Assembly: GCF_000496755.2 (NCBI RefSeq) | Contig: NZ_AYKS02000112.1 | Location: 51,727-115,726, forward strand | From: Serratia sp. DD3 | GTDB taxonomy: Bacteria > Pseudomonadota > Gammaproteobacteria > Enterobacterales > Enterobacteriaceae | Reading direction: 5' to 3' | DNA: 64,000 bases | Shown here: positions 4,747 through 24,501 of the stretch, piece by piece | How positions within the stretch are numbered: position 1 is the stretch's first letter | Layout of the letters: each line of letters begins with the position of its first letter | Notes under the pieces: generated by a model | Database searches by the model: none | The model's input: only the letters and a program-made list of their open reading frames with translations | What the model was told of the DNA's origin: nothing | Translations under genes and position numbers: made by a program

Positions 4747-6462
4747 TTACTCATCTTGATCAAAAATTGGGTCTGGCTCATCACTCGCGGGCATTTCTAC
4801 GCGCAGGTCAATCCAGCGTCCGGATGGTATATCGAACGGTGTGCCGTCAGGCATTGGTACATAAATGGGGATATTGTTGTAAACCTCGCCACTGTCCATG
4901 GTTTCAATATTCCGTGCTGAATATGGGCCCGTATCGTATGTGCGATGATACGTGCGGATCTCTATGTCGCCGTCCGGCAGTATTCTTGATTCAATCCAAA
5001 TTACTGGCCGTTTGTTATCATCAACAGGAATTTCGATGCCGTTCCCAGCCCCTCCCCATGCACCATCGCCGTTAAACCCGAGCACCCCGGAAACCCGGTA
5101 GATACCAGTATCAATGCGCTCAGTTGTCACACCCTGACTCTCATCATTTAGCTCGCTGGAACCATCACCGTACAACTTAACAATGGGGCTAGCGGCTTTG
5201 ATAAAGCCGTTGGCGTCCACTGTGGTGTTGAAATCCGTCCATGTGCGCTTTTCAGAAATTGGAGTGTATCCACTGGGCTTTGTTGCTGTCCACACAAGCC
5301 CGTCTATTGGTGTTACACCGTTGAGCGTTCCTGTTTCAACGTTGCCAATCAGTGCAACGCGCGGAGAGTTGTATCCGTTACCGGATATCCATAATTCCCA
5401 CATCCCAGTAGTGGTATTATATATTGCGCCGCAGTTTATATTATTTAGAGGGTTTGATGATGTCATGCCGTGCCTCATCATCTGTAACCCGTTGGACGCG
5501 AGGATAGTTGTGGTTGCTCCCCGCGCACTGAAATAGATATACGCAATATCCATTCCAATTTCACCGTATTGTCGCCCTTGGGTAATCATAAAAAGCATTC
5601 CGCGACTACTCCCCGCAGTAATGCTCTGCTGCGCGATTTTACAATAACGCTCACCGGATGATGCAGACGGAATCAGCGGCGGCGCAATTTGCACATCAAC
5701 GCCTGCAACTACTGGCTTATTCCCGACAAACAAGCCGTTCAGAGCATATGTAATTCCTGTTCTCGCGTTAACATAGAAAACAGGCTTACCTTGGCTCACT
5801 CCGGGGCTAAGCCCTACACCAACTGTTGGCACAATAGCAAAGCCGTTCCACGTGCCTATATTTGTATTATTCGTATCCGTGAAAGACGCGGTGTCGTTAC
5901 CTTTGAAAAATATCGGATAGTTCCCTAGTGTTGTGGAGAGAGTTCCAATATCAGCAGCCGTCATGTTAGTTGTTGAAATAAGACCTTTTGGTACGGATAC
6001 AAGGCCATCGGCGCGGCCTTGTATAGAATAAGTAGTTCCATTCCAACGCATAGAGAGTGTTCCTGTGGAAGTATCAGCAAACACCGCTGATTTTTCTACA
6101 GCATTAACATCACGAAAACGTATCAAAACATTTGGCGTTAAAGGTGTGGCAACAATTTGATGATCTCCATTAAATATAAGATTACTTTTAAATTCAACGG
6201 GTCCTGCTACTGTTTGATTGGTATTCGTTGTCTTACTCAATGCATCTGCCATTGCAGCAACGGCGCTATTCTCGCTGGCTTTCGCTGATGCTGCTGATGC
6301 GGACGCGTCATTACTAAACATCCATGCACGATCAGCAGACGCGGCGGCGCTATCAGCGGCTTGACTACTTGATGCCGCGTTTGCTGCTGCTTGCGTATCC
6401 CGTGGTTGCAATTCGTCTTTCACGCCTACAATGTTGCTTGCTGGTAAACCGTTAGATGACAT
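4747..6462 (-). CDS. Phage tail fibre protein
   Basis: A 571-residue fibre. The N-terminus (GLPASNIVGVKDELQPRDTQ) is followed by an Ala/Ser-rich heptad-like stretch, about residues 25-75 (AAANAASSSQAADSAAASA, SASAASAKASENSAVAAM), typical of trimeric fibre shafts. Beta-rich repeats follow. The C-terminal module at about residues 420-560 (IVKLYGDGSSELNDESQG, WIESRILPDGDIEIRTYHRT, SGRWIDLRVEMP) recurs at the tips of many enterobacterial phage fibres. It should bind the surface receptor and set target range. It is the last gene of the tail operon and, unusually, is not followed by its own assembly chaperone; the only one lies upstream. It is bordered by short GC hairpins that could mark a module-exchange point. 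Confidence 0.8.
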   Translation of the reverse strand: MSSNGLPASNIVGVKDELQPRDTQAAANAASSSQAADSAAASADRAWMFSNDASASAASAKASENSAVAAMADALSKTTNTNQTVAGPVEFKSNLIFNGDHQIVATPLTPNVLIRFRDVNAVEKSAVFADTSTGTLSMRWNGTTYSIQGRADGLVSVPKGLISTTNMTAADIGTLSTTLGNYPIFFKGNDTASFTDTNNTNIGTWNGFAIVPTVGVGLSPGVSQGKPVFYVNARTGITYALNGLFVGNKPVVAGVDVQIAPPLIPSASSGERYCKIAQQSITAGSSRGMLFMITQGRQYGEIGMDIAYIYFSARGATTTILASNGLQMMRHGMTSSNPLNNINCGAIYNTTTGMWELWISGNGYNSPRVALIGNVETGTLNGVTPIDGLVWTATKPSGYTPISEKRTWTDFNTTVDANGFIKAASPIVKLYGDGSSELNDESQGVTTERIDTGIYRVSGVLGFNGDGAWGGAGNGIEIPVDDNKRPVIWIESRILPDGDIEIRTYHRTYDTGPYSARNIETMDSGEVYNNIPIYVPMPDGTPFDIPSGRWIDLRVEMPASDEPDPIFDQDE

Positions 6463-6490
6463 AATAATTCCCCTAAATTTTCATTGTGAC

Positions 6491-6506
6491 CCGGGATCCC
6501 TCCCGG
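6491..6506 (-). terminator. GC hairpin after the fibre-assembly gene
   Basis: CCGGG and CCCGG arms surround a short loop just after the stop at 6516. The flanking text (GGG-A/T-TCCCTCCCGGCATT) is shared with the hairpin at 4722-4739, so each of the last two genes of the operon ends in the same element. Confidence 0.4.
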
Positions 6507-6515
6507 CATTTCAGA

Positions 6516-7121
6516 TTATGGTGCTACTGGCCACTCAATATCCGGGGCGGTATAAATGTCTACCCGGCCCAGTAAGACCCGGTATTTTTTCCACTGCAAG
6601 AAAGCAGCGGATTCCGCCTCAGTTGCCATGTCCAATTCAACTGCATCAGTCAAGATAGCTACCTGCTCATTTGCAACCCGTTGACGTTGAGCTAGTTCAG
6701 CCTGCGCAGCGGCTACATCTGCGGCATGTTGCGCTGCCGTGTCAGTCACCCACTTTTCACCGTCCCATACATCATGGGGCGTTGATGGGGCCATCAGGGT
6801 TAACTCCGCTGCTAAAGGACCCAGCGTAGTGACTTGCACTGGCTGACCGGTTGCGGTGTGATAAACCGTTTGGCCGCGATAGTCCTGTACCATCTCCCAT
6901 GCATTGACGCCTAAGTTCCGCACGATAGCAAAGCCAGTTTTCGGCGTCGGTGGTTCATCTGCGAAACTGTACGCAGGTAGGCCGACACCGACTGGCAAGT
7001 ATTCGTGCAGCACCTGCTGATATTCCCGCTGTGTGGGTTCAATAGTGTAAATAGGCAACCATCCGGCAGTTATCGTCAAACCAGTTTCATCCAGAATTGC
7101 AATTGGTAATTTGTTACTCAT
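6516..7121 (-). CDS. Tail fibre assembly protein (Tfa family)
   Basis: A 201-residue protein of the caudoviral tail-fibre assembly family. The N-terminal part has INxPLP-like text (TPKTGFAIVRNLGVNAWEMV, DYRGQTVYHTATGQPV). A DVWDGEKWVTD hinge leads into a helical Ala/Gln-rich stretch and the C-terminal LQWKKYRVLLGRVD and PDIEWPV motif, diagnostic of Tfa. Such proteins chaperone fibre trimerisation and may stay on the tip. It starts 1 nt after the stop of the collar-type fibre gene, its likely client. Confidence 0.9.
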   Translation of the reverse strand: MSNKLPIAILDETGLTITAGWLPIYTIEPTQREYQQVLHEYLPVGVGLPAYSFADEPPTPKTGFAIVRNLGVNAWEMVQDYRGQTVYHTATGQPVQVTTLGPLAAELTLMAPSTPHDVWDGEKWVTDTAAQHAADVAAAQAELAQRQRVANEQVAILTDAVELDMATEAESAAFLQWKKYRVLLGRVDIYTAPDIEWPVAP

Positions 7122-7122
7122 T

Positions 7123-7857
7123 TTACGCGGCTCTCACTATGTAGTTGAAGGTAACGTTACGGGATCGGGTTTCAACAGCTCGTTTGTACCTCGCTCGCGA
7201 CACTGACCTTATGGTTTCATCACCAAATGATTCTCCTAGCATAAATCCATCGATTGAATCGGTGGCTGGATACTGTGCGGCACGCGGGGTTGATACAAAA
7301 AACTCGTTTATAGCCATACCGTTCGTTGCAGTCATGAGACCAATTGCATCACTTTGCGTGCTCAGCATTACTCGCCCTGCATCTACCCCACGCCCATCAT
7401 CCCAACCACGAATAAACTCACCGCGCAAATCGGGTAATACTCCGGATGGGTATGCCAGGGCCAACAGTGGATATAGTGATGTATTGAATGTCGAACCATT
7501 GCATTTTAGCCATCCCACCGGAGGCACGGACGTTGGCCACGGTATTGGTGTGCCGATCGGTAAAACTGATCCGTCACTGGACTGCAAATACAGCTTATTA
7601 AGCGCAGCACGTAAACTGCTCTGCACCACCGCCAGGTCACCATTATCCAGCACATCATTACCGCTGTTATCCGCGATAAACTGAGCTACAACGGAGGCAA
7701 TGACTGACGACTGGCGCCATGCGGTGTTTAGCTCACGGGATTTTGCTACGCCAGACTGAAACCCAGTGCGGCGAGCGGCCAAAGACTGGTACTCGGTGTT
7801 GCTTAATACGTTGGCGTTACCAGCTGTGCCAAACGGTAAAAACTCATTTTTAGCCAT
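7123..7857 (-). CDS. Tail fibre protein with phage tail collar domain
   Basis: A 244-residue fibre. The N-terminus is FLPFGTAGNANVLSNTEY, a segment found at the base of many Mu/P2-type fibres. Around residues 100-150 is a collar-domain motif (GTPIPWPTSVPPVGWLKCNG, YPLLALAYPSGVLPDLRGEFIRGWDDGRG). The C-terminus ends in RNVTFNYIVRAA, typical of short-tail-fibre tips. It is compact for a fibre and sits between the DUF2612 baseplate protein and the Tfa chaperone. It probably attaches to the baseplate and contacts receptor. Confidence 0.87.
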   Translation of the reverse strand: MAKNEFLPFGTAGNANVLSNTEYQSLAARRTGFQSGVAKSRELNTAWRQSSVIASVVAQFIADNSGNDVLDNGDLAVVQSSLRAALNKLYLQSSDGSVLPIGTPIPWPTSVPPVGWLKCNGSTFNTSLYPLLALAYPSGVLPDLRGEFIRGWDDGRGVDAGRVMLSTQSDAIGLMTATNGMAINEFFVSTPRAAQYPATDSIDGFMLGESFGDETIRSVSRARYKRAVETRSRNVTFNYIVRAA

Positions 7858-7864
7858 GCTATTC

Positions 7865-8521
7865 TCATCCTAAATTAATACCCCAAAAGCCAGCGTCTAA
7901 GCCGACAATGAAGCTGTTATCAACATCGAAGCCGAATAGCTCCCCGGGTTCACTGACGATTGTGTAACTATTGATCCCCACTGTTGACGGCTTAACGTCT
8001 AAATAACCTTGGGCGATAATCGCTTTCATCACCGCTGAAATACCCTCTCCGGTGATGAAAATATCCATCGTCATATCGAAGTTATCGACAGCGAATATGC
8101 GCGTTTTACGGTCTGGGAATATCGCTTGATAAACATCGCTCAGGGTTTCGGTGGTGCCATCCCAGTGGTTGGCGGCTATCTTGGCGCGTAAAATGGTGCG
8201 GTAGGTGTCATCATCAAGTACGGTAATGCCGTCGCCTGCGTCGAACTCCCCTTTCCAAATTCCTTGGTCAGCACCAATGCCGTCGATGTCAAAACTAAAG
8301 AACACACCTTCAATCGGCGTTTTTACAGTGCGTCCGATGCCGATCCATAGACCAACCGCGTCGAGCTGCACACCAATCGCGGTATCCAAATCAAAATCAG
8401 CAACCAGGTTATTGGTTACATCCTGAATATTGATAAATGGTTGCGTGATTAAAGTGATGTGATCGAAAAACTTCGGTTTATGCCGATGATATGACGTTAT
8501 CAGCCCCTGGTATCTGGTCAT
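7865..8521 (-). CDS. Baseplate protein, DUF2612 family
   Basis: A 218-residue protein with the DUF2612 signature: QPFINIQDVTNNLVADFDLDTAIGVQLDAVGLWIGI, then a beta segment, then DDDTYRTILRAKIAANHWDGTTETL. In this tail type it replaces the P2 gpI-like baseplate component next to gpJ. It overlaps the end of the baseplate J gene by 4 nt (ATGA), so the two products are probably made stoichiometrically. Role: peripheral baseplate wedge or fibre attachment. Confidence 0.85.
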   Translation of the reverse strand: MTRYQGLITSYHRHKPKFFDHITLITQPFINIQDVTNNLVADFDLDTAIGVQLDAVGLWIGIGRTVKTPIEGVFFSFDIDGIGADQGIWKGEFDAGDGITVLDDDTYRTILRAKIAANHWDGTTETLSDVYQAIFPDRKTRIFAVDNFDMTMDIFITGEGISAVMKAIIAQGYLDVKPSTVGINSYTIVSEPGELFGFDVDNSFIVGLDAGFWGINLG

Positions 8522-9705
8522 ACCGTCACCACAGTCACGTTAGCCGGCGCGCAAGCCGCAGCCTCGTTAAAGCCAACAACAATATTTGACGGGGCTAATG
8601 TGCCAGGCGCGGTGCCGATCTGCAGGTCGATAATGTCGTACGTCGAGCCGTCAGCGCTGCCGTTAAGATTCGCTGGTAAAAACAAGCGGGTGATGAACAC
8701 CGGCTCGCCGATCCGGATAGCGTTGATGTATTCAGAAACAGTTCGCTTGATTTCATCGCCAATTGCCGAGGTGTAGCCAACGAACGGCGTTAATCTAACT
8801 TCAACGAAAACATCTACAGCAGTCGGCCGGAAAAAGCTGATCGGATGCACGATACCGTAGTTGTCGGTTACTGGGATCGTTGTGGTACCGAATGTACCGC
8901 CGCCTGGCGTTTTCTTGGTTGCGATAGTTTGAGCGATAGCTGTAGCGTCGCCCCCATCAACCACTAGGGAAATTGAGTGCGCCGGTAACCCGTTAGCGTC
9001 CGTTGTAGCGGTGTCGTTCTCATAGCCCCTGTACCGCTCGACGCTGGGCAGTGTCGCCACGGCCCCCATAATGCCATCCAACACAGTCAGTGACGGCAGT
9101 GCCACTGAGCGCGTTTGACGCTGGCGTAGTTCCGCATCGGTTTCAACCGGTCTGCCGGGTGTTGCCGCTGCCGGGTTGGTGACTGACTGCCAACCCTGCG
9201 TAGGGGTGCCGATCACTGTGATAGTGCCCGGTGGTGCAACAATCGCCCCGTCTACCTGACACGTTGCTGTGACCGTAACGTCACCATCGGTACCGATTGT
9301 GACAACGGACGGTAATGACCACGAAATGCCGTTGCTATCGCGCACCACGCCGTTGGTGATTTGTCGCCCAACCTGCCCAACAATTAAAACGTCAGCGGTT
9401 GAACGGCTGGCAGGCGTTACCGCTATGCCGTTAATTTTAACGTTGGAAGCCAGCGCCCCGAACTGGGCCGTTGCCGGGCTGAATGAGTTGTACACCGCAA
9501 TGGCGGTGTTGTTGGCGTCATGAATGCCCAGCGCGTAAATAGCCAGCATCTGACCGTCTTTGCTGTCTGGCTCCAGATAGACATCTTCACCATAAATCTG
9601 GCGGAAATAGTCGCTCAAAGTGTCGATGATGGTCTGGTAATCAGGCGCAGTAATGCCACTCGCGGTCACCGTGGCCGCAAGCCCGAGTGTTTTAAGATTT
9701 AACAT
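8518..9705 (-). CDS. Baseplate J-like protein
   Basis: A 395-residue baseplate J/gp47-family protein. The early part, YQTIIDTLSDYFRQIYGEDVYLEPDSKDGQML, is the classic J signature. It is followed by RSTADVLIVGQVGR, TPGRPVETDAELRQRQTRS and the GGDATAIAQTIATKKTPG block of wedge proteins. It builds the hexameric baseplate ring that triggers sheath contraction. Stop and start overlaps with both neighbours show tight packing within the tail operon. Confidence 0.92.
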   Translation of the reverse strand: MLNLKTLGLAATVTASGITAPDYQTIIDTLSDYFRQIYGEDVYLEPDSKDGQMLAIYALGIHDANNTAIAVYNSFSPATAQFGALASNVKINGIAVTPASRSTADVLIVGQVGRQITNGVVRDSNGISWSLPSVVTIGTDGDVTVTATCQVDGAIVAPPGTITVIGTPTQGWQSVTNPAAATPGRPVETDAELRQRQTRSVALPSLTVLDGIMGAVATLPSVERYRGYENDTATTDANGLPAHSISLVVDGGDATAIAQTIATKKTPGGGTFGTTTIPVTDNYGIVHPISFFRPTAVDVFVEVRLTPFVGYTSAIGDEIKRTVSEYINAIRIGEPVFITRLFLPANLNGSADGSTYDIIDLQIGTAPGTLAPSNIVVGFNEAAACAPANVTVVTV

Positions 9706-10058
9706 TATGCCTCGCTGGTGACTGTGGTTTCGCCGTACAGCGTATTGATGGTGGCGGTAAAGGTGACCTGACGCGTTTCGCCATTCTGTTGAGTGTTAAA
9801 CGTCTGGATCTCCGAGACCCCCGGTGTGGCGAGGATACGTTCACGCACCACCATGTTATAAGCCATTGACTGATGTTTGCCGAGTATCGCCTCACGGTAG
9901 GGAGTCCCCGCCGCCAAATCCAGAAACCATTCCCCCTGCCATAAGGCAAAACGCGTTTTTAGCGCCTGGGCTACGGTTGCTGGGCTGTTGGTCAGAAAGG
10001 TGCTATCCCCCTGGCCAAAGGTGTAATCCCCGTTGCTCTCTTCTCTACGGTATCTCAT
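9705..10058 (-). CDS. Baseplate protein, GPW/gp25-like position
   Basis: A 117-residue protein with DSTFLTNSPATVAQALKTRFALWQGEWFLDLAAGTPYREAILGK, ending in ITTLYGE-like text (NTLYGETTVTSEA). Position (between the spike and gpJ) and size fit a gp25/gpW-type wedge protein, although the sequence family is one usually labelled as a hypothetical phage protein. It overlaps the spike gene by 4 nt and the J gene by 1 nt. Confidence 0.7.
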   Translation of the reverse strand: MRYRREESNGDYTFGQGDSTFLTNSPATVAQALKTRFALWQGEWFLDLAAGTPYREAILGKHQSMAYNMVVRERILATPGVSEIQTFNTQQNGETRQVTFTATINTLYGETTVTSEA

Positions 10059-10813
10059 TGTGGTTTACCTGTGTTGCCACCGCCGGTCTGTACGCCGCCG
10101 TGGGTGTGGTTGACCAGGCTCTTGCCACTTGCAGTAACATCGTTGGTGACTTTTATCGGCCCCAACATAGTGGCACTGCCGCCGCTACTGCCCATCCCTT
10201 GTGACAGGTTGCCATTGATGGTGACATTGCCATTGAGCACAATTTGCGGCGAGGTGATTTCTGTCCCGCCTTGGGCGCTGGCGGTCAATTTGCCAGGAGT
10301 GGTGACAGTAACGGCATGGCTGCCAGGTTCCAACTCAATAAACGCCGCGCCATCGTCACTGCGTAGTTGCGCGCTACGGGTGCTGATGCCACTGAGTTTA
10401 TAGCGCTGTGATTGTGGGCCTGGGATAACAAACGCGTCCGAAAGATCATGCATTCGTTGATCCACCCGTTCCTGCGTATCGCCGTTTTGCCACCAGAAAT
10501 CGATACAGCGGTCAGCAAACACCACTAGGCATTCATCCCCGGCTTTAATCGGGAAGGTGAGCGTCACCCCACCACCACGGGGGAAGACCACCGGTAAATC
10601 CAGCAATAAAGGGTAATCTACCGACTTCATTTTGCGCCCTTGCTGCTCGCTATCCGGCATCACGGTTTTAATACCCAGTGAAACCACGCAGGTGACAGAC
10701 TCCGGGTCGAAGGATTTAATGGTGCCTGGGGCGGCGGTGCGGGTGCGGGCAATCACCTCCTGTTGTATCTGTTGATAAATATCCTGCTCATCAATAGGTC
10801 GAGTGGTTCTCAT
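10055..10813 (-). CDS. Baseplate spike, Gp138-like
   Basis: A 252-residue protein. The N-terminal OB-fold region (PGTIKSFDPESVTCVVSLGIKTVMPD, then DLPVVFPRGGGVTLTFPIKAGDECLVVFADRCIDFWWQNG) is the Gp138 domain. The C-terminal half is a repetitive beta helix (VTVTTPGKLTASAQGGTEIT, VLNGNVTINGNLSQG) ending in a Gly/His-rich tip (HTHGGVQTGGGNTG) of the kind that binds a metal at the membrane-piercing point. It serves as the central spike below the tube. It overlaps the hub gene by 4 nt. Confidence 0.87.
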   Translation of the reverse strand: MRTTRPIDEQDIYQQIQQEVIARTRTAAPGTIKSFDPESVTCVVSLGIKTVMPDSEQQGRKMKSVDYPLLLDLPVVFPRGGGVTLTFPIKAGDECLVVFADRCIDFWWQNGDTQERVDQRMHDLSDAFVIPGPQSQRYKLSGISTRSAQLRSDDGAAFIELEPGSHAVTVTTPGKLTASAQGGTEITSPQIVLNGNVTINGNLSQGMGSSGGSATMLGPIKVTNDVTASGKSLVNHTHGGVQTGGGNTGKPQ

Positions 10814-11907
10814 TTGCCCCCCTGTGATTGAGTTGATACTGGTGCATGAGCGTCACAGACAAGGTCCATATACCAGTTTTGTCCCCGGGTATCCCCCAGG
10901 TAAGTGATACTGCGGACAATATAGAGACCATCGGAAGAGAGACGGGCTGATTGTGGTTTGCTTTCAGCGGGTTGGCTCGCCGCTGATTTACCGGTAGCTG
11001 ATTTACCGGTAGAGGGTTTAGCTGCGGCTTGACTCTGCTCGGCAATAGCGGAATCCGGCGTTGAGCTCTTTAAGCTCTCGGCATCCACCTCAATCAAGCC
11101 ATTGAGTTTGATATTGGGGTTAATCAGGCAACGCACATTGATGCCAACCTCAGAAGAACTACTCCCCCCACTGCCGGCGGTCTTTTGCGGCTGAACCATC
11201 AGGCCACTGCCCGCATTAAGTGTAATCGCCTGATGGGCGCTCATCTCTTTGGTGTAGATATCAAGCCGATCACCGACAAACTGCCATATCGCCCCACCGG
11301 GGAACTGTTTAACCAGTTCGGTGAGATAATCTCTGACAAAACCATGAAACACTTTGCCCCGGGGGAATACAGTGGTTGGGAAGGTGGGCAGCATCCCCGC
11401 CACCATGCCATAGGGTTTAAGTGCCTCCAGCAACAGATCATAAACATTTTTCAGCGTATAGCCTTTGGCCAGCGGGGTTTTGATAAACGCTTTATTATAG
11501 GCATCAAAACCGTCACTAGCCTGGATCACCAGCCAGCTATCGGTCACTGCCGTTTTCCCGGTGGCGGTGAAGCGGATGTCGCCACTAAACAGCAAACCAA
11601 AGTTCATATCATCATGTTGGCCCACCTGATCATCAGAGATGACTTTTACCTTGCCCACATCACTGGCAGCAACATCGGGGGCAATACCGTCATATCCGGC
11701 GATAATTTTCATTTTAGAAAACTGACGGCCAATAATTTTATTTTGTGTCTCTGTGGACAGATTATAAATAGTGACGGTGGCAACACTGGGGCTTGAGGCA
11801 CTTTTCCATTCTATTTTAAAGGTCACTTTGAATTCACTGAGAAGTATGCCATTACCGTTATTATCGGTTAAGACCAATTCAAAGTGGCGCATCCAGTTTC
11901 GGCTCAT
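10810..11907 (-). CDS. Baseplate hub protein
   Basis: A 365-residue protein. The N-terminus RHFELVLTDNNGNGILLSEFKVTFKIEW and VATVTIYNLSTETQNKI is typical of hub proteins that pair with Gp138-type spikes (the gp27/gpD role). A PGGAIWQFVGDRLDIYTKE segment follows. Near residues 285-330 there is a low-complexity linker rich in Ala/Ser/Lys/Pro (AKPSTGKSATGKSAASQPAES), after which conserved text resumes (GLYIVRSITYLGDTRGQNWYMDL). It connects tube and spike. Confidence 0.83.
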   Translation of the reverse strand: MSRNWMRHFELVLTDNNGNGILLSEFKVTFKIEWKSASSPSVATVTIYNLSTETQNKIIGRQFSKMKIIAGYDGIAPDVAASDVGKVKVISDDQVGQHDDMNFGLLFSGDIRFTATGKTAVTDSWLVIQASDGFDAYNKAFIKTPLAKGYTLKNVYDLLLEALKPYGMVAGMLPTFPTTVFPRGKVFHGFVRDYLTELVKQFPGGAIWQFVGDRLDIYTKEMSAHQAITLNAGSGLMVQPQKTAGSGGSSSSEVGINVRCLINPNIKLNGLIEVDAESLKSSTPDSAIAEQSQAAAKPSTGKSATGKSAASQPAESKPQSARLSSDGLYIVRSITYLGDTRGQNWYMDLVCDAHAPVSTQSQGGK

Positions 11908-16053: not shown

Positions 16054-16062
16054 GTTTTACCC

Positions 16063-17544
16063 TTATCGGTTTACATTGATGATAACGTCAGCGAAGTGCA
16101 CAGCCCCGGCCAACTTGATTGCGCACTGGATCACCGGTGCTTTACGTGCTTCACGATCCGCCTGAGCCTGGCTGGCAACCGGTGGTGCATAGGTGTAGTA
16201 ACCGGTGGTCAAGGTGTCGCCGCTCTTCAATTGCCCTACAGGATCGCCATTCCACACCCCAGGAGCGATCAGGCCGTTGGTCACACCCTGCTCCAGCGAA
16301 CCCGTCACACTGGCCAACAGGCGGGTAATGCCCTGATCGGTCTGTGGCACTTTGCTGGTGCTGGTATAGAGCATGTTATAAAGGTTGTTCTGCACGTAGT
16401 TCTGCAGCCAATCCAGGCCGTGGCGCTCATCGAAGAAGTCACCGTTAGCCATCACCCCTTCTTGAATAATTGCGGTGTCGTTGTCGTAATTGACGAACAC
16501 GTTGCAGTTTTTCTTTTGCAGTGTTCTGGCTTGGGTTTGAGTCAGGAATTCCGCTGCCACACCCGGTTGCTGCTTAAACTTCAAGGTGATGGTGGTGTTG
16601 TTACCCAGGAAGTTGACGGTAAAGGCACGGCCAAAAATCGAAGCACTGGCGTAAGGGCTGGCACTGGAGTACTGCACCAGCGTACGCCCATATTTTAGTG
16701 CTTTCAGTTGGCTGGCAATGTCGTCAGTGATGTCTGCATCAAGCACTGCGGTATTCTGGGTGGTATGCCCATAAATGCGCGCTGTGTCATCAGACTGAAT
16801 AAATGCCGCGATGCTGAGCACATCGTCATTTTTAAGTGAAGTATCGGCAATCTGCAGCCCGTACCAGTCGGTAGACATATCCGCCAGTTTGAAAATACAA
16901 GACTGAATAGTTTCAGCGGCAACCCGCGCAATGGCTAACGCACCGTTGTTTTGTGCCGCCTTGATCATCAGCGAGATGTCAGTGCCGGTGGTGTTGGCAG
17001 CGCCGTAGCCAACCGATGACATTGTCCCGGTGGTTTTCGACGCGATGATAAAGCGGTTATTGGCCGCATCCCAACTGGCGGTCGCATCAATCAGCTTCTC
17101 GGTAATCCGTGCTGCCACCCCATTAAGGTTGGTTTCTGCGGCAAAACTCAAACCAGTGATCGCTTTTTCGCTGCCATCAATGGTGATTTTCATCGCGCCA
17201 TTGGTGACCGCATTCCAGGTGCTGATGGCCATTTCAGCCGGGGTCAGCATACCGCAGCGCAGTAACGCCGCTTGGTCCGCCTTGACCCAGCGGCCAATCA
17301 ATAGCGTTTGCGGCTGGGGCATTTGCTGATAATACATTTGTGCGGCCTGGTACTCAGGCGTTTCCATACCAAAATCTGCGCCGACTTGGGTAATGCTCGT
17401 GTAGCTGCGCATACGCTGACTACCGTCGATTACCGGAGAACCGCCAACAATCAGCAACGCCCCGAAGTTTCTCCCCTGCGCCGCGCGCAAGGCCATATTC
17501 ACCGTAACAGATACGATGTTAGATACAGGTAAACCCTGTGACAT
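16063..17544 (-). CDS. Contractile tail sheath protein, DUF3383 family
   Basis: A 493-residue protein starting [40 protein letters not shown], the DUF3383 sheath signature. The C-terminus ([40 protein letters not shown]) also matches. It polymerises around the tube and contracts on receptor binding. Its presence makes this a contractile (myovirus or R-type) particle. The GLPxSNIVxV start recurs at the N-terminus of the 571-residue fibre at 4747-6462. Confidence 0.92.
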
Positions 17545-17547
17545 AAG

Positions 17548-18096: not shown

Positions 18097-18206
18097 TAGA
18101 CCTCCCTATGGCGGTAATGTGGATAAACCCGGCCGACGGTTGCTAGGCATAGCCGCCCGCCGCCGATGATCAAGCCGGTGATATCTCGTTTGGGTAGGGT
18201 GATTTG
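18093..18206 (-). pseudogene. Short open frame before the neck gene, possible head-gene remnant
   Basis: A 37-codon open frame (ITLPKRDITGLIIGGGRL, then VYPHYRHREVY) has no clear start of its own. It ends in a TGA overlapping the TTG start of the neck gene, the arrangement expected for the 3' end of a translationally coupled upstream gene. It may be what remains of a head-tail joining gene after deletion of the head module. It is short, so chance is possible. Confidence 0.25.
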
Positions 18207-18234
18207 TTACAAAGTGGCTCTAAATAACGGTGCG

Positions 18235-18513
18235 TTAAGCCCTAAACGGCAAGGGGTGCGCAGAACGCCACAAATTCAGCACATCAATGCGATAGGCACA
18301 GAGTTCCAGCGCGGTTTGTAGCTGCAGCGCATAACTGCCAATATCCCCCCAGGTCGTGCCTTGCAATGCGGGCTTTTCACAGGGAGTAAAGACGGTTTCC
18401 GGCGGCATCAGGACCACCGGCTGCGGTACCGGGGGGAGCGGCGCTTTACTGCAAGAGCTCAATAACAGCACCAGGGGCAGCAGTAACAGCGCACTGATCG
18501 TTTTTAGTTGCAT
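18235..18513 (-). CDS. Rz1-like outer-membrane spanin lipoprotein
   Basis: 92 residues from the ATG at 18513. The signal MQLKTISALLLLPLVLLLSSC carries a lipobox (LLSSC), so the mature protein is a lipoprotein, followed by a Pro-rich segment (APLPPVPQPVVLMPPE). It overlaps the 3' end of the Rz gene in another frame, the standard Rz/Rz1 nested arrangement. Together they fuse inner and outer membranes in the last step of lysis. Confidence 0.85.
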   Translation of the reverse strand: MQLKTISALLLLPLVLLLSSCSKAPLPPVPQPVVLMPPETVFTPCEKPALQGTTWGDIGSYALQLQTALELCAYRIDVLNLWRSAHPLPFRA

Positions 18514-18772
18514 CACGGTACCTCCTTTGGTTGTCGCTGGCCTGTTGCCGCAGTTGCTGCTCTTTCTGCTGCTGCGCGGCGAGCAAAGCGCGATTTTGCG
18601 CATCTTGCGTTTGCAAAGTGCCAATTAGGGCGGCTTGTTGTGCCAGTGACTTGCTCTGCTCTGCCAACAATTCCTTGGCCGTATCCAGGCGGCTGGAAAG
18701 AATGGTGCTGTACCAACCCAGGCAGATGGCCACCAGCAACGCGCCGATCAGGCCGTATTGCCCTAGTTTCAT
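18446..18772 (-). CDS. Rz-like inner-membrane spanin
   Basis: A 108-residue protein with one N-terminal membrane anchor (LIGALLVAICLGWYSTIL) and a long Gln/Ala-rich coiled coil (LAEQSKSLAQQAALIGTLQ, LLAAQQQKEQQLRQQASDN), as in the Rz/LysB family. It overlaps the endolysin stop by 4 nt (ATGA) and contains the start of Rz1. Confidence 0.87.
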   Translation of the reverse strand: MKLGQYGLIGALLVAICLGWYSTILSSRLDTAKELLAEQSKSLAQQAALIGTLQTQDAQNRALLAAQQQKEQQLRQQASDNQRRYRDATKNDQCAVTAAPGAVIELLQ

Positions 18773-19185
18773 GGGTACTCCTGGCGGCGCAGTTCAAAAT
18801 GTGGGCCATCGTAGAACTTCTCATCATTGCTACGGCCGTTTTCATTCCAGTCACCGCCCCAACGAATCCTGACACCGAGCTCTTTTGCCGCCTGGAACAT
18901 GGCATCAGACACCGCCTTGAATTTACTTTGGTCATTCCAGGGAATGGCGCTATTCACCAGTGGGGCGCAATCAACAGCATGGCCCGTAATGTGCCGACTA
19001 TTGAGCGTTTGACTGGCACCATTGCGTACTAGCTGGCGCTGGCGTTCCTCGCTGCGGACCCCCTCAATCACTCTGAAGTCCACCGAAGTCAGTTCAATAG
19101 CGCGGCGTACTACGGCAACCAATTCCGGCCTGACTCCACGTAAGTTGGTTTCACTCACTTTTCCTAAAATAAATTTACTGGCCAT
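18769..19185 (-). CDS. Endolysin, M15 L-alanyl-D-glutamate-type peptidase
   Basis: A 138-residue single-domain peptidase. SRHITGHAVD at residues 63-72 supplies the Zn ligands His65 and Asp72, and GPHFEL near the C-terminus supplies His129. This is the SxHxxGxAxD / HxH layout of M15 (VanY/T5 endolysin-like) enzymes. It has no signal peptide, so release depends on the holins encoded just upstream. It cuts the peptide stems of peptidoglycan. Confidence 0.92.
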   Translation of the reverse strand: MASKFILGKVSETNLRGVRPELVAVVRRAIELTSVDFRVIEGVRSEERQRQLVRNGASQTLNSRHITGHAVDCAPLVNSAIPWNDQSKFKAVSDAMFQAAKELGVRIRWGGDWNENGRSNDEKFYDGPHFELRRQEYP

Positions 19186-19468
19186 TTTTCGTTCTCAGTC
19201 CGTTAAAAAGCTGCGCTAAATTGCCCCGCACCACAAAAACTGCGATGCAAAGTATCGAATTAATCACCGTTTCAGAGATGTCATGAGCGGGGTAATCCCC
19301 CATCAGTGCGCGGATCGGCACTGAGCCAGCCGCCACGATAAGCAGGTAGGCGGCGAAGGAGATAAAAGGTTTATGTGCTGAACCACTGCGACTGTAGAGC
19401 ACCAATCTGAGCGCCAGTAGGCCGCAGGCAATGGAGTTGATAATCAGTAACAGTTGGTCGGCGTTCAT
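19175..19468 (-). CDS. Holin, three-helix phage type
   Basis: A 97-residue membrane protein with three hydrophobic segments (LLLIINSIACGLLALRLVLY, FISFAAYLLIVAAGSVPI, ETVINSILCIAVFVV) and a charged C-terminus (GLRTKNGQ). This fits the Phage_holin_3_7-like class. It overlaps the endolysin by 11 nt and the second holin-like gene by 4 nt, within a compact lysis cassette. Confidence 0.85.
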   Translation of the reverse strand: MNADQLLLIINSIACGLLALRLVLYSRSGSAHKPFISFAAYLLIVAAGSVPIRALMGDYPAHDISETVINSILCIAVFVVRGNLAQLFNGLRTKNGQ

Positions 19469-19836
19469 TTGGGCCCCCTTAGACGATCAATCAAACCCGT
19501 CGGGTTACCCGCTTGATTGCTGATAAACATCAGTAAGCGGACCGCTACGGCTGATGCGACAATCGCCCCTAACGGCCTGGCGGCCATGACACTTTCGGGG
19601 GTGATTGAGGTAATAATCGAGGCGACAAAATCGGCCCCGAGGATGCCTGCGATCATCGAGACCACAAATAGCAACCCCTTAATGCGCCAAGTTAAATCTG
19701 TTGCTGAAACCACAAAAAGCACTGAACCGGCAAAGGCACCGACCATCGCCCCAGCATCAATACCTGATAGCAGCCCGATAAAAGTGACACTGGTGACGGC
19801 TGCTGTCGCCGCACCGGTGCTAATCGGCTCTGACAT
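19465..19836 (-). CDS. Second holin-like membrane protein (LydA/Phage_holin_3_3-like)
   Basis: 123 residues from the ATG at 19836, chosen because AGGAG lies 7 nt before it; the frame extends 30 codons further upstream into a hairpin region. It has several membrane segments (AAVTSVTFIGLLSGIDAGAM, VGAFAGSVLFVVSA, LLFVVSMIAGILGADFVASI, GAIVASAVAVRLLMFI). It resembles the LydA-type holins. With the 97-residue protein it may form a holin/antiholin pair. Confidence 0.8.
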   Translation of the reverse strand: MSEPISTGAATAAVTSVTFIGLLSGIDAGAMVGAFAGSVLFVVSATDLTWRIKGLLFVVSMIAGILGADFVASIITSITPESVMAARPLGAIVASAVAVRLLMFISNQAGNPTGLIDRLRGPK

Positions 19837-19883
19837 AATGATCTCCTGTTGTTCGCTTCGCTCAGCGAACGCCGGGCGATAGA

Positions 19884-19910
19884 AATAAAAAAGGCCCACC
19901 GAAGTGAGCC
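19884..19910 (-). terminator. Intrinsic terminator upstream of the lysis genes
   Basis: On the minus strand, GGCTCAC-TTCG-GTGGGCC is followed by TTTTTTATT: a 7-bp stem with a UUCG-type tetraloop and a U-run. It lies between the antiterminator gene and the first holin, where a Q-dependent phage has its tR' terminator. A further short hairpin (GTTCGCT/AGCGAAC) sits at 19851-19870. Confidence 0.75.
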
Positions 19911-19981
19911 TGAAGTTGTATTGCAATTTTTATTAGTGCACGAAAATATCCTGCTGCTTATGGATAACTTCGCGCTTTGTC

Positions 19982-20040: not shown

Positions 20041-20049
20041 CTGCGGGAC

Positions 20050-20094: not shown

Positions 20095-20103
20095 ATGTGG
20101 TAA

Positions 20104-20628
20104 TCATACCCTCGTGGCTAATGCCTTGTCAAGCCACTTGTCAGCAATATGTGAAACTTTAGCGACACGTTTACGACCGATAAAGGCATTTTGCAGTGGT
20201 TGGTAGAGAATAAACAGGCTGGCACTCAGGATCTGATCCACTTCATTGCGGCAGGTGCCAAATGACGGTTTGCGCCACTCTTCCCCTAAACGTCCGTTGA
20301 ATTTGCGCGGTTTTGCTGTCTGATGATAGTAGGTGGCAATGGCTCGCTTGGATGAGCCATGGGCGTAATAACTCAGCAGGATGCCAAACGCTTTTTTATC
20401 AATCGACATCACTGAATCCACCACCTGGGAAATCAACATCCCGTCGTCGTCATTGCACTTCGGCCTGGCTCGGTATCCTGAGGGTTCCACGCTCTCCATA
20501 TAGCGGGCGATCACATTACTTTGCCGCTTTTCCAACCGCCCAGAATAGACCCACGCCCCCCAGAGCTCCAGCCAACCATTAAGCCAATTATGTTGTTCTG
20601 TTGTCAGGCTCAATTCTTTAACTGCCAT
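20104..20628 (-). CDS. Antiterminator Q-like protein
   Basis: A 174-residue protein with LELWGAWVYSGRL near the N-terminus, KCNDDDGMLISQVVDSVM, then FGILLSYYAHGSSKRAIATYYH, a helix-turn-helix-like block. This pattern is that of lambdoid Q proteins of the phage 82 type, which bind near the late promoter and let RNA polymerase pass terminators. A strong GGGGGAG precedes the ATG. It sits just ahead of the lysis/tail operon, and two terminators separate it from the first holin. Confidence 0.8.
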   Translation of the reverse strand: MAVKELSLTTEQHNWLNGWLELWGAWVYSGRLEKRQSNVIARYMESVEPSGYRARPKCNDDDGMLISQVVDSVMSIDKKAFGILLSYYAHGSSKRAIATYYHQTAKPRKFNGRLGEEWRKPSFGTCRNEVDQILSASLFILYQPLQNAFIGRKRVAKVSHIADKWLDKALATRV

Positions 20629-20761: not shown

Positions 20762-20959
20762 TTAGCGCCATATCCGGCTGATCATCGAGCGAGGTGTGGG
20801 TTTGAGATAACGCTGCTCATGCAGTTGTACGATCACATCCCACAATTTAGGGTCGGCATTTAAGGTTCTTTCTGCCTGTGCCCCCGTACGACGATAAGTT
20901 TCAAGCAGTTGGATCGATTCTTCGGTAGTGACTGCTTGGTGAATAAAGCTGGTTTTCAT
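20762..20959 (-). CDS. Small phage protein of unknown function
   Basis: 65 residues (MKTSFIHQAVTTEESIQLLETY, then TLNADPKLWDVIVQLHEQRYL, ending SMISRIWR). The ATG has AGGTG 8 nt upstream. It lies between the replication and antiterminator genes on the same strand, with a basic C-terminus. No family is recognised. Confidence 0.5.
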   Translation of the reverse strand: MKTSFIHQAVTTEESIQLLETYRRTGAQAERTLNADPKLWDVIVQLHEQRYLKPTPRSMISRIWR

Positions 20960-21126: not shown

Positions 21127-21867
21127 TTATCGCTTGGATGAACCCGAAGAGAGATTGAATTTTTTGCGTATTGCAGCGATGTACTGTAACCCCTGTTCAT
21201 TGCTGACCGGGGTGTGTATCCGGGTGATCATGGCCGCAGGAGCCGGGAGATCTTCACCCGCTTCAAGGCGCTGGATCATGGCTGCCAACACTTTAGTGCA
21301 ATGCTTGCGTAGCTCAGACTCTGTCAGCCTGAGAGCACGCATCTCTGAATAGAGTTGGGTGACCATCAGCCAGCAGGCGTTGCTTTGCCAAGAATAGCTT
21401 GACCAAGAATAGCTTTGCCAAGGATAGTGCTCGGCACTTTGGTAGTAACCGCGTTCGGCGCTGTATTTCATTACCATGTCATACAGTTCGCGCTCATCAG
21501 GCAAGCCAAACAGGCGGCTGGCCCCCTGTTGGCACCAGGCAATAAATTGCCCCGGTGATGGCCAGAATGGCGATTCACAGGCTCTGGCATGTTGCATTCC
21601 GGCAGAAAGCTGTTCACGGCGGTGAATACCATTTTCAGCAAAAGCGGCAATCCACTGTTTTTTGGCTGCCGATTCATCCGCTTCGCTACGCAAGTTGGTT
21701 TGGCGGGCCGCCGGGAACACCTGTTTAAGTTGTTTAAATAGCGTATCAACCAGTTTTTCTGCATCCGGGTTGACGATACTCTGCACATTGGCGGGCTTTT
21801 GCCGATAGATTTCGGCCAGTGTCAGCGCATCACGTTTAGCGATGGCCGTCCTGAGTCGATGGGTCAT
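21127..21867 (-). CDS. Replication protein P-like
   Basis: 246 residues from the ATG at 21867, which has GGGAGG 8 nt upstream and overlaps the preceding gene as ATGA. The sequence RLRTAIAKRD, LVDTLFKQLKQVFPAARQTN, KKQWIAAFAENGI, SPFWPSPGQFIAWC is typical of lambda P-family helicase loaders, which bring host DnaB to the origin. A short local repeat (YSWSSYSWQ, from QSYSW units) lies around residue 150. Its presence shows that a phage replication module is kept. Confidence 0.82.
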   Translation of the reverse strand: MTHRLRTAIAKRDALTLAEIYRQKPANVQSIVNPDAEKLVDTLFKQLKQVFPAARQTNLRSEADESAAKKQWIAAFAENGIHRREQLSAGMQHARACESPFWPSPGQFIAWCQQGASRLFGLPDERELYDMVMKYSAERGYYQSAEHYPWQSYSWSSYSWQSNACWLMVTQLYSEMRALRLTESELRKHCTKVLAAMIQRLEAGEDLPAPAAMITRIHTPVSNEQGLQYIAAIRKKFNLSSGSSKR

Positions 21868-22640
21868 AAGAATTCCTCCCATGATTCTTTGCTGTTCCAG
21901 TGGGGCACCGGCTCGGCATTCACCACCTGCTTGGCTCTTCCCCGCTGTTTTAACTGTTTGTTCTGGTAACTGAGTTTTTGGCTGGCGGTGATAAACCAGT
22001 TTTTGGGCTTCTGATGGCTGAATTCAATATCCAGCTTTTGCAGTTCGTAATTCAGATCGATCAACGGGTAGAGTTGCGCCCAGGCATTGAAGTCTTTGTG
22101 GTTGAGCCGGATCACCTGGCCTTCAAAGGCATAGCGCCCAGAGATGGGGTGAACTATTGCCTCGGTAGGTAAATTCATGGCCTCCACAGGGAAATCTGGC
22201 TCACAGCAGGTAACACCTGCAGGCTGGGAATGATAATTAATATCTTGATCCTCTCCCTTCCCTTCCGGATCCTTTCCGCCAGTGAAGGCTCCATGATCAC
22301 TCACTGAGTGCTCAGTAAGTCGTGGCCTGGGGATGGTAGTTTTTGATGGTCGGTTTATTTTCTGATGTTTATTAAACCCCTTAATATTCAGATAGCTCGC
22401 CTCACTCACTGAGTACTCAGTGAGCAGCCCGTGAGTCATCAGTTCTGCTATCAGCGGTTCGCAATCCATACTGTCCGCAGGGAAGATCTGCATTTTGATC
22501 CGCTTTGGCGAATTGACCAGATTGCCGTTATCGTCAGCAAAATTAAACATGCCAATAAACAGCAGCCTCGCCGCTATTGAGCATTCCGCGACCTTTTCGT
22601 CAGTCCAAAGCTCAGGTTTAACCGTGCGTATTCTTGCCAT
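21864..22640 (-). CDS. Replication protein O-like
   Basis: A 258-residue protein starting MARIRTVKPELWTDEKVAECSIAARLLFIGMFNFADDNGNLV. This winged-helix N-terminus is common to phage replication initiators. The C-terminal part (FNAWAQLYPLIDLNYELQKLDIEF, PKNWFITASQKLSYQNKQ) is DnaT-like. It is the first gene of the leftward early operon and contains two palindromic 20-bp repeats that may be its own origin. Together with the P-like gene it forms an initiator/loader pair. Confidence 0.82.
   Translation of the reverse strand: MARIRTVKPELWTDEKVAECSIAARLLFIGMFNFADDNGNLVNSPKRIKMQIFPADSMDCEPLIAELMTHGLLTEYSVSEASYLNIKGFNKHQKINRPSKTTIPRPRLTEHSVSDHGAFTGGKDPEGKGEDQDINYHSQPAGVTCCEPDFPVEAMNLPTEAIVHPISGRYAFEGQVIRLNHKDFNAWAQLYPLIDLNYELQKLDIEFSHQKPKNWFITASQKLSYQNKQLKQRGRAKQVVNAEPVPHWNSKESWEEFL
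22300..22319. repeat. Putative origin iteron, copy 1
   Basis: CTCACTGAGTGCTCAGTAAG is a near-palindrome and differs at two positions from the copy at 22405-22424, 105 bp away. Both lie inside the O-like gene, where lambda O keeps its iterons. The DNA between them includes an AT-rich stretch (22355-22392). Confidence 0.5.
22405..22424. repeat. Putative origin iteron, copy 2 (perfect palindrome)
   Basis: CTCACTGAGTACTCAGTGAG is a perfect 20-bp palindrome and the partner of the copy at 22300-22319. The encoded peptides also repeat (LTEYSVSEAS and LTEHSVSDHG), so either DNA function or a coding duplication could explain the pair. Confidence 0.5.
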
Positions 22641-22819: not shown

Positions 22820-22895
22820 ATAAGTTTGTTTATACAAATTCATAAACAATATAGTTTGTTTATTATTGTTAAAAAATTTTGTTTGTCAAATACCA
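22820..22895. promoter_or_regulatory. Repressor operator region between O-like and repressor genes
   Basis: An AT-rich stretch with two direct copies of AGTTTGTTTAT (22823-22833 and 22853-22863, 30 bp apart), an inverted ATAAAC at 22842-22847 and a further GTTTGTCAAA at 22881-22890. It lies between divergent early genes and the repressor start, where a CI-type repressor binds. The words TATACAAATT and GTTTAT/GTTTAC recur on the other side of the repressor gene at 23826-23846. Confidence 0.6.
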
Positions 22896-22935
22896 TTTTT
22901 CTGGTAAAAATCAGATCTAACAATCTGAGGGTCTT

Positions 22936-23640: not shown

Positions 23641-23819
23641 TTTGCACCAAGCTTGGGTATCCCCATGCCCAAACTTATCTCCTCTGAAATCAATATAATC
23701 AATTGATTTAAAAAAGAAACAAGCCCTCCCATCAAGTAACACCATGACTTTATCCCCTTCCCCACCTGCCATCTCAAGAAATAAACCCCTTTAAAAACAA
23801 ATAAATACCACAAATTACT

Positions 23820-23850
23820 TATTTATATACAAATTAATTTGTTTACCCGA
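23820..23850. promoter_or_regulatory. Second operator-like site downstream of the repressor
   Basis: ACAAATTAATTTGT (23830-23843) is a perfect 14-bp palindrome within TATATACAAATTAATTTG, followed by TTTAC. The word TATACAAATT is shared with the main operator region (22831-22840). It lies about 80 bp before the small gene at 23927 and could control that rightward transcript. Confidence 0.5.
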
Positions 23851-23926
23851 GAACAATATTTCTTGTATCATTTATCGAAATCACTAACAAAGCATACAAA
23901 TTACAAGATTTATCACTGGAGGCACA

Positions 23927-24175
23927 ATGACCACCATCATCGTTAAGCCAGCAATAGACAATGCCAAGTCGCGCAAATACCAAAAAACCAAGGCGTTCTT
24001 CGCCAAGTAAGACGCAGACCGAGCGTTGGCAAGGAAAATTAACCAAGCTTGGACGAAGTTAACTCGCACCGAGTTACCACGGCGGAAGGAAGAATACAGC
24101 GGATCTTGCTGCTTACCCGAAGTCGCCAAGTTTGCTGCGGGTTACCGTCAATCTGTAAATATAACAGCTCAATAG
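23927..24175 (+). pseudogene. Small early phage gene interrupted by an in-frame TAA
   Basis: The ATG at 23927 has GGAGG 5 nt upstream. The frame reads MTTIIVKPAIDNAKSRKYQ then KTKAFFAK and stops at TAA (24008-24010) after 27 residues. The same frame then stays open for another 54 codons (DADRALARKINQAWTKLTRT, ELPRRKEEYSG, EVAKFAAGYRQSVNITAQ) to a TAG at 24173. The downstream text is protein-like and joins smoothly, so a Tyr-like codon was probably mutated to a stop. The family is not recognised. An alternative is a genuine 27-residue peptide. Confidence 0.5.
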
Positions 24176-24183
24176 GGGGCCCT

Positions 24184-24501
24184 ATGAGCAATTACCAACG
24201 TATGATCGACCAGATGCTGGAACAGTATGAATCTATGTTGGAAAAATCCCCCGATGAGCAAAACCTGATTGGCGACCAGGTCGATCGGGAGATGAAAGGG
24301 CTGAAACTTCACGGCTTTCGTCATGCCGCCAGCGCTCTATTCCCCTGTGCCGATCAAAAACAGCTTGCTGCCGTGATGGATTCAGCCTGGATGGATGAAC
24401 GCTTGTATGACGCTCAGTATGAAATTGTACAACGGATGGTGATGCTGGAACGCACCATGCTGTTATCACGAGAAAAATATCACCTGCGCGGCGCGGCCTG
24501 A
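24184..24501 (+). CDS. Phage-associated hypothetical protein
   Basis: 105 residues from the ATG at 24184; an upstream in-frame ATG is disfavoured because the GGGGG-containing leader (AATAGGGGGCCCT) lies directly before this one. The product is helical and acidic (MSNYQRMIDQMLEQYESMLE, VDREMKGLKLHGFRHAASAL, EIVQRMVMLERTMLLSREKY). It starts 8 nt after the interrupted gene and is the last phage-type gene before poxB. No family is recognised. Confidence 0.6.
   Translation: MSNYQRMIDQMLEQYESMLEKSPDEQNLIGDQVDREMKGLKLHGFRHAASALFPCADQKQLAAVMDSAWMDERLYDAQYEIVQRMVMLERTMLLSREKYHLRGAA

What the first reader, a model, noticed from the sequence alone, without database searches (positions are those of the whole stretch)
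4747..24501. Contractile tail plus lysis operon without head, terminase or integrase: candidate R-type tailocin
Seen: sheath, tube, tape measure, hub, spike, baseplate and fibres, then Rz/Rz1, endolysin and holins directly upstream of the neck gene; Q, O/P-like genes and an SOS-type repressor. Not seen: portal, capsid, terminase, integrase. Known tailocins show this layout. Keeping O/P-like replication genes and iterons is unusual for a tailocin and suggests recent origin from a lambdoid-regulated myophage.
Basis: partly seen in the sequence, partly recalled or inferred. Interest (0 to 1): 0.72.

Follow-up and report, generated by a model that had tools for sequence, protein, structure and literature searches.

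The report
Headless phage-tail weapon keeping replication genes
A Serratia-like chromosome carries a virus-derived locus that still encodes a contractile tail, a lysis kit, a stress-sensitive switch and a DNA-replication start, but no virus head, so it most likely makes bacteria-killing tail particles and may copy its own genes in place to make more of them.

Summary
Window 4747-24501 encodes a contractile tail, lysis genes, Q, O- and P-like replication proteins and a CI-type repressor with an S24 domain. None of 11 head/packaging proteins of intact relatives matches there. In phages SEN34 and yong1 that block lies between Rz and the tail terminator; here these genes are 138 bp apart. Of 155 related tail loci on a tree, 94 are headed, 52 headless, 6 partial, 3 undecided; the window is one of 8 headless lineages and groups with headed Serratia prophages. 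Two near-consensus promoters, the only ones in 20.1 kb, sit at the repressor/O gap and the end of Q. Best reading: an SOS-induced R-type tailocin from a SEN34/yong1-like lambdoid myophage. Unlike the usual definition it keeps O, P and an origin-like array; with the probes used, two other headless lineages also keep replication genes. In-place amplification on induction is a testable idea, not a result. No particle, killing or induction was tested. The window's own assembly is not held, so a head donor elsewhere cannot be excluded.

The parts
4612..4619 (.). left border of the insertion, upstream of the host gene yhfZ (3650-4555)
   Evidence: collinearity with Serratia oryzae (L100) ends at 4612 and with Serratia sp. 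Ag1 (L101) at 4619
4747..6462 (-). tail fibre / second receptor-binding protein (571 aa)
   Evidence: phrog_1591 over residues 394-561
6516..7121 (-). tail fibre assembly chaperone (201 aa)
   Evidence: phrog_105, E 1e-73
7123..7857 (-). short tail collar fibre (244 aa)
   Evidence: phrog_523, phrog_3100; first 86-91 residues match fibre ORFs of headed relatives
7865..8521 (-). baseplate/tail structural protein
   Evidence: phrog_587, same place in the order as SEN34_26
8518..9705 (-). baseplate wedge, J-like
   Evidence: phrog_6
9705..10058 (-). baseplate wedge, W-like
   Evidence: phrog_120
10055..10813 (-). baseplate spike with gpV-type apex
   Evidence: PF18352, PF18946 Apex
10810..11907 (-). 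baseplate hub
   Evidence: phrog_196
11904..12215 (-). tail structural protein
   Evidence: phrog_349, same place in the order as SEN34_18
12216..12606 (-). extra stretch between two tail genes that abut or overlap in most relatives; probably non-coding
   Evidence: gap measured; no copy in fetched loci other than L001; no family for the ORF in it
12607..13170 (-). Dit-like tail protein
   Evidence: PF21821
13170..15026 (-). tape measure protein (618 aa)
   Evidence: phrog_2276, E 3e-86
15171..15602 (-). tail assembly chaperone
   Evidence: phrog_1688
15613..16053 (-). tail tube
   Evidence: phrog_280; position directly after the sheath as in SEN34
16063..17544 (-). contractile tail sheath, DUF3383 family
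   Evidence: phrog_205 E 2e-134; relatives carry PF11863
17548..18096 (-). tail terminator
   Evidence: PF23961, phrog_1973
18097..18234 (-). junction where the head/packaging block lies in intact relatives; no head remnant found
18235..18772 (-). spanins Rz1 and Rz (overlapping frames)
   Evidence: phrog_456, phrog_214
18769..19185 (-). endolysin
   Evidence: phrog_465
19175..19468 (-). second holin
   Evidence: phrog_217
19465..19836 (-). first holin (probable ATG at 19836)
   Evidence: phrog_198 starts at residue 31 of the longer frame 19465-19926
19892..19911 (-). terminator between late promoter and lysis genes (tR'-like)
   Evidence: z -4.4
20103..20132 (-). late promoter (pR'-like), 11 of 12 to sigma-70 consensus
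20104..20628 (-). Q-like antiterminator
   Evidence: phrog_943 E 6e-80
20762..20959 (-). small early protein of unknown function
   Evidence: phrog_1212
21127..21882 (-). P-like helicase loader
   Evidence: phrog_109 E 4e-68
21864..22640 (-). O-like replication initiator
   Evidence: phrog_17247, phrog_1408
22278..22321 (-). origin-like array of four degenerate 11-bp units inside O
   Evidence: read by eye against related O genes; overlaps one copy of the 23-nt palindromic repeat
22823..22889 (-). early promoter (pR-like, 22889-22862, 11 of 12) overlapping operator-like repeats TTGTTTAT/ATAAACAA
22936..23640 (+). CI-type repressor, HTH plus S24 self-cleavage domain
   Evidence: PF01381, PF00717; phrog_4
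24049..24501 (+). ORF of unknown function at the right end (likely start 24184)
   Evidence: no PHROG or Pfam family

Best explanation
The locus is a head-deleted, integrase-less descendant of a SEN34/yong1-like lambdoid myophage that most likely works as an SOS-induced R-type tailocin. DNA damage makes the S24-type repressor cleave itself (inferred). The early promoter beside it then transcribes O, P, a small gene and Q (sequence shown, activity inferred). Q lets polymerase from the late promoter read through the terminator into holins, endolysin, spanins and the tail operon (inferred from the lambda-type layout, recalled). Tails assemble, are capped by the retained terminator in place of a head, and leave by lysis to puncture related cells chosen by the two fibres (inferred). 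O, P and the origin-like array are intact-looking and may also replicate the locus in place, raising gene dosage (speculative; see the novel case).
For: Tail, lysis and regulatory genes with open frames. No match to 11 head/packaging proteins, while relatives L004/L005/L006 carry 8, 11 and 11 of 11. Gene order equals the annotated phages SEN34 and yong1 in the late region except for the missing block between Rz and the terminator. The terminator is kept in all 30 headless loci among L004-L083 (headless there means no match to any head or adaptor protein; L002 and L003 are fragments and were left out). Eight headless lineages on a 155-locus tree; 9 parsimony changes (the partial lineage counted) against a mean of 46 and minimum of 37 in 300 shuffles. 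Only 2 near-consensus promoters in 20.1 kb (mean 0.25, largest 2, in 20 simulated sequences), both at the expected control points; terminator z -4.4. Core tail genes are conserved against headed relatives (sheath dN/dS 0.04-0.07, J-like wedge 0.05-0.08).
Against: No particle, induction or killing data. At the looser 9-of-12 threshold, promoters and terminators in 17.5-24.7 kb are no more frequent than chance (8 against 7.6, 7 against 7.6). The dN/dS values compare with headed phages at near-saturated dS (several estimates failed), so they do not show selection after head loss. No close headless copy of this exact locus was found to prove upkeep: Serratia sp. S1B has a 96% sheath, but its context is unknown and S1B is not named among the 120 listed of 2976 O hits, many of them unnamed. 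Tape measure, hub and terminator are far more diverged than the sheath, and the terminator is closer to the headed Yersinia locus L007 (59%) than to the Serratia loci, so the module is mosaic. Replication genes are not a tailocin trait.
Confidence: 0.74

Rival explanations
1. An inert prophage remnant: the head block and integrase were lost by deletion and the rest is simply not yet eroded; no particle of use is made.
For: The right end looks eroded: what may be one small gene at 23927-24175 has an in-frame stop at 24008 (read), and about 390 bp of extra, probably non-coding DNA sits inside the tail operon. The nearest relatives are headed prophages. No conserved close copy could be fetched.
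Against: The tail, lysis, Q, O, P and repressor frames are open; the deletion keeps the parts a tailocin needs, including the terminator, and the promoter/terminator switches are in place. Headless relatives keep lysis genes plus terminator plus tail in several lineages.
Confidence: 0.17
2. A helper-dependent or tail-donating element: its tails join heads made by a related co-resident prophage.
For: Serratia sp. Ag1 carries two related loci in one genome, one headed (L004) and one with partial head genes (L010); the kept terminator is the part that meets a head in a phage (recalled).
Against: Head-tail adaptor genes are gone, no packaging gene or integrase remains; the window's own genome cannot be searched, so there is no positive evidence.
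Confidence: 0.05
3. An assembly or cloning deletion removed the head genes from an intact prophage.
For: A single deletion at one junction could look like this.
Against: The same junction is in the separately catalogued viral record L001 (100% identity over the gap), though that record may derive from the same assembly; no integrase is present in the element either.
Confidence: 0.04

Closest known systems
Salmonella phage SEN34 (Brunovirus) and Hafnia phage yong1, intact lambdoid myophages
   Same: same order O, P ... Q, holin, endolysin, Rz ... terminator, sheath, tube, chaperone, tape measure, hub, spike, wedges, fibres
   Different: they have an integrase, CII, early recombination genes and a terminase-to-adaptor block; none of these was found in the window
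Headed Serratia prophages L004, L005, L006
   Same: sheath 79-83% identical, same tail order where the contig reaches
   Different: 8, 11 and 11 of 11 head/packaging genes present
Headless relatives near pdxJ-acpS in Dryocola, Cedecea, Erwinia and Pseudescherichia (L012, L061, L083, L080)
   Same: no head; repressor, Q and/or lysis genes shortly before terminator and tail (pdxJ and acpS identified in L012, pdxJ in L083 and L080, L061 by ORF pattern only)
   Different: no O/P-like genes found with the probes used; different chromosomal site
Headless loci L065 (Pseudescherichia vulneris) and L079 (Shimwellia pseudoproteus)
   Same: no head, HTH repressor, O-like gene, Q, lysis, tail; no tyrosine-integrase (PF00589) hit on their contigs
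   Different: DnaB-type helicase instead of P; shorter repressors (151 and 154 aa, not scanned for S24); separate places on the tree
Enterocoliticin (Yersinia enterocolitica)
   Same: headless contractile particle with CI- and Q-annotated genes next to the tail genes (PMC13030884: abstract, sections 3.1 and 4.1, figure legends and tables read)
   Different: no O/P replication genes mentioned in the sections read; family of its sheath not checked here
Carotovoricin (Pectobacterium)
   Same: holin, lytic enzyme, sheath, tube, tape measure, baseplate, fibres (PMC13195805: abstract and two passages)
   Different: conserved place between tolC and ybiB across the genus; sheath family and gene list beyond the passages not checked here

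Membership tests
R-type tailocin | contractile sheath, tube, baseplate, spike and fibres encoded | tested here: met
R-type tailocin | no head or packaging genes in the locus | tested here: met
   0 of 11 in the window
R-type tailocin | no replication genes (as stated in a passage of PMC12090994) | tested here: not met
   O-like and P-like genes present
R-type tailocin | own lysis cassette | tested here: met
   holins, endolysin, spanins
R-type tailocin | no integrase at the locus | tested here: met
   no integrase PHROG hit in the frames scanned; the neighbouring ORFs 3650-4555 and 24663-26381 are host-type genes
R-type tailocin | SOS or stress induction | tested here: inconclusive
   S24-type repressor and promoter layout; no induction data
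R-type tailocin | headless particle that kills related bacteria | not testable with these tools
   needs electron microscopy and killing assays
intact SEN34-like temperate myophage | terminase, portal and capsid | tested here: not met
intact SEN34-like temperate myophage | integrase | tested here: not met
extracellular contractile injection system (Afp/PVC type) | AAA ATPase and multiple sheath paralogues, no lysis genes (recalled) | tested here: not met
   lysis genes present, single sheath, no ATPase hit in the frames scanned

The most novel reading that the evidence does not exclude
A self-amplifying tailocin: on SOS induction the retained O, P and origin-like array fire replication of the non-excising locus in place, so the tail and lysis genes are multiplied before the cell bursts. 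Headless loci with replication genes and no integrase found occur in three places on the tree here (window, L065, L079), which would make this an intermediate or a stable second design among tailocins rather than an accident.
Probability: 0.22. Interest if true: 0.66.

Novelty: new variant of a known kind. Interest (0 to 1): 0.47.

Why it matters
It shows a tailocin-like locus caught between phage and weapon: head and integrase gone, replication and lambda-type control still there. The comparison set suggests that one phage family has lost its head block many times next to the same tail gene, with shorter tape measures in most headless lineages. That makes the route from phage to tailocin, and whether replication genes are useful to a weapon that never packages DNA, directly testable.

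Tried and rejected
Rejected: a T6SS or Afp-type injection system (lysis cassette, single sheath, no ATPase hit). Rejected: an intact phage with a diverged head inside the interval (138 bp between the Rz1 frame and the terminator). Led nowhere: LexA-type boxes in 4.6-24.7 kb (none of form CTG-N10-CAG with 11 of 16 or better); Rfam (0 hits); megablast of the element against phage records (5 Klebsiella records, about 76% over some 157 bp, by position in the spike gene); a genome scan with the single sheath sequence (32 stretches, 0 relatives), followed by the alignment scan. O-gene search of 392 family genomes at E 1e-70 gave 0, and the tool warns that this shows nothing. Right border of the insertion not found: the neighbouring TPP enzyme has only 46-47% relatives, in 4 of 7 genus genomes. 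I considered L065 and L079 as one lineage kept under selection because they are collinear at about 64-74% DNA identity; not accepted as proof, because the L065 helicase is closer to helicases of many other viral contigs, up to 78%, than to that of L079, 70%, so independent head losses from related phages fit too. Literature, listings only unless said: tailocin plus Serratia, 66 papers, 30 listed; carotovoricin, 33, 20 listed; DUF3383, 5; five-term origin search, 3; tailocin plus 'in situ replication', 2; tailocin, tape measure, shorter, length, 3; tailocin plus acpS, 0; at least three of tailocin, replication genes, prophage, headless, 19, 10 listed. Three papers were opened. These searches are not proof that the points are unpublished.
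Full report
What is there. The interval 4747-24501 is one phage-derived block. Its genes run on the minus strand, except the repressor and the right-end ORF. PHROG and Pfam scans give, in transcription order: O-like initiator, P-like helicase loader, a small phrog_1212 gene, Q, two holins, endolysin, Rz/Rz1, tail terminator, sheath, tube, chaperone, tape measure, Dit-like protein, a small tail protein, hub, spike, two wedge proteins, a third baseplate protein, a short fibre, a fibre assembly chaperone and a second fibre. On the plus strand lies a 234-aa repressor with HTH and S24 peptidase domains. Flanks are host genes: yhfZ and a phosphopentomutase-like gene on the left, a TPP enzyme, fimbrial and lac genes on the right.

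No head. Head and packaging proteins of three intact phages with this tail (11 roles; 10 used from PSTCR3) were compared with the window and 86 loci. The window has 0 of 11. Its closest relatives by sheath, Serratia L004 and L006 (83%) and L005 (79%), have 8, 11 and 11 of 11; L004 is cut by its contig. In SEN34 and yong1 the order is Q, holin, lysozyme, Rz, then terminase to head-tail adaptor (yong1 has two further genes before the terminase), then terminator and sheath. In the window the Rz1 frame ends 138 bp before the terminator gene, and that gap matches nothing but the window's own viral records. No integrase was found, and no minus-strand frame longer than 27 aa lies wholly in the gap between repressor and O, where Cro and CII would lie in lambda (recalled).

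Setting. Collinearity with Serratia oryzae and Serratia sp. Ag1 ends at 4612 and 4619, which sets the left border. The right border could not be set, because the gene at 24663 has only 46-47% relatives, in 4 of the 7 genomes searched. The window's own assembly is not held. The host is called Serratia-like from the sheath (96% to Serratia sp. S1B) and from 78% DNA identity of the left flank to S. oryzae and Ag1.

Control. In 20.1 kb only two sites reach 11 of 12 to the sigma-70 consensus, against a mean of 0.25 and a maximum of 2 in 20 simulated sequences. One lies in the repressor/O gap (22889-22862) among TTGTTTAT/ATAAACAA repeats; three of the window's four TTTGTTTAY sites lie on either side of the repressor gene, although four in 64 kb is itself not rare (7 of 100 shuffles). 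The other (20132-20103) overlaps the end of Q and is followed by a strong hairpin and T run at 19911-19892 (z -4.4), before the holin. This is the lambda pR'-tR' layout (recalled). At the tool's looser threshold neither promoters nor terminators exceed chance.

How often this happened. From 163 loci given (window, L004-L086, L191-L269, with some genomes present twice under genome and viral names), 155 had at least 5 of 7 tail genes and were placed on a tree; 8 were dropped. Scored by head genes: 94 headed (including loci cut by contig ends that show at least one head gene), 52 headless, 6 partial, 3 undecided. Parsimony needs 9 changes, the partial lineage counted, against a mean of 46 and a minimum of 37 in 300 shuffles. 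Headless loci fall into 8 lineages: window, Photorhabdus, a large group with Enterobacter, Cedecea and Dryocola, an Erwinia group, and single loci L065, L079, L080 and L053. The node placing the window with L006/L191 has support 0.71; the node above L079 has 0.40, so the count is approximate. Tail genes are exchanged between phages (the window's terminator is closest to a Yersinia locus), which could inflate it.

Tape measure. Headed loci have a median tape-measure frame of 675.5 aa (46), headless 599 (31, the window and the short or broken frames of L058 and L080 included). Against the nearest headed sister group, 6 of 7 lineages are shorter: six headless lineages and the partial one, with L079 the exception (664 against 657) and the window at 619 against 699; frames under 450 aa were not used, L080 had none left, and L053 has no proper sister group. 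This was noticed after the fact and is exploratory.

Replication genes. The review passage read (PMC12090994) lists absence of replication genes as common to tailocins and relatives. The window keeps O and P with open frames, and by eye four degenerate 11-bp units in O like those of related O genes; the repeat tool did not call that array. With the first probes none of 32 loci (30 headless, 2 partial) showed O or P. PHROG scans of chosen upstream genes then found an O-like gene and a DnaB-type helicase in L065 and L079, and probing again with these found replication genes in no further headless locus, several of which are cut short upstream. Neither L065 nor L079 has a PF00589 integrase hit on its contig. 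So at least 3 of 8 headless lineages keep replication genes. They may simply be young.

Selection. Pairwise dN/dS of sheath, J-like wedge and tube against headed relatives is low where it could be computed (sheath 0.04-0.07, wedge 0.05-0.08, tube 0.09-0.18), but dS is near or beyond saturation and several estimates failed. This says the proteins are conserved, not that selection has acted since the head was lost.

Verdict. It works, most probably, like an R-type tailocin and derives from a SEN34/yong1-like lambdoid myophage. It is not filed as a canonical member, because one stated feature, absence of replication genes, was tested and not met. Enterocoliticin is the nearest described tailocin with CI and Q genes by its paper (PMC13030884: abstract, sections 3.1 and 4.1, figure legends and tables read); whether its sheath is of the DUF3383 family was not tested. 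That paper names cryptic prophages of other Yersinia, among them Y. frederiksenii, as similar; the Y. frederiksenii locus fetched here, L007, has all 11 head genes. Carotovoricin (PMC13195805: outline, abstract and two passages) shares the module list.

Noticed in passing
window 23927-24175 (+): May be one small gene interrupted by an in-frame stop at 24008-24010 (read); the right arm of the element seems to be eroding.
   Followed up: no
window 12216-12606: About 390 bp of probably non-coding DNA between two tail genes that abut or overlap in most relatives; no copy in the fetched loci other than L001.
   Followed up: partly
window 21382-21427: Three near-perfect 15-bp-spaced tandem repeats inside the P-like gene.
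   Followed up: no
L010, L062, L211-L213, L215-L217: Loci (L010 and L062 from Serratia; the others viral contigs of unread origin) with a portal-like gene and three further head genes before the tail, but no capsid or terminase match; tape-measure frames of 519-564 aa in the six that could be measured.
   Followed up: partly
L012, L061, L083, L080: Headless tail loci of several genera share a host neighbourhood with pdxJ-acpS (both identified in L012), suggesting an old fixed tailocin site or a common attachment site.
   Followed up: partly
window 41182-52512: NRPS region: a 530-aa condensation protein ends inside an AMP-binding domain just before a 3227-aa frame (that frame not scanned), so the first gene may be split by a frameshift.
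   Followed up: no
window 54996-62568: T6SS DotU, a VgrG and a Tle3-type lipase effector followed by three ORFs of 270-289 aa that may be repeated immunity genes (size only; not compared).
   Followed up: no
window 33969-40350: What looks like a complete lac operon (LacI-type regulator, LacZ, LacY, acetyltransferase) by Pfam.
   Followed up: no
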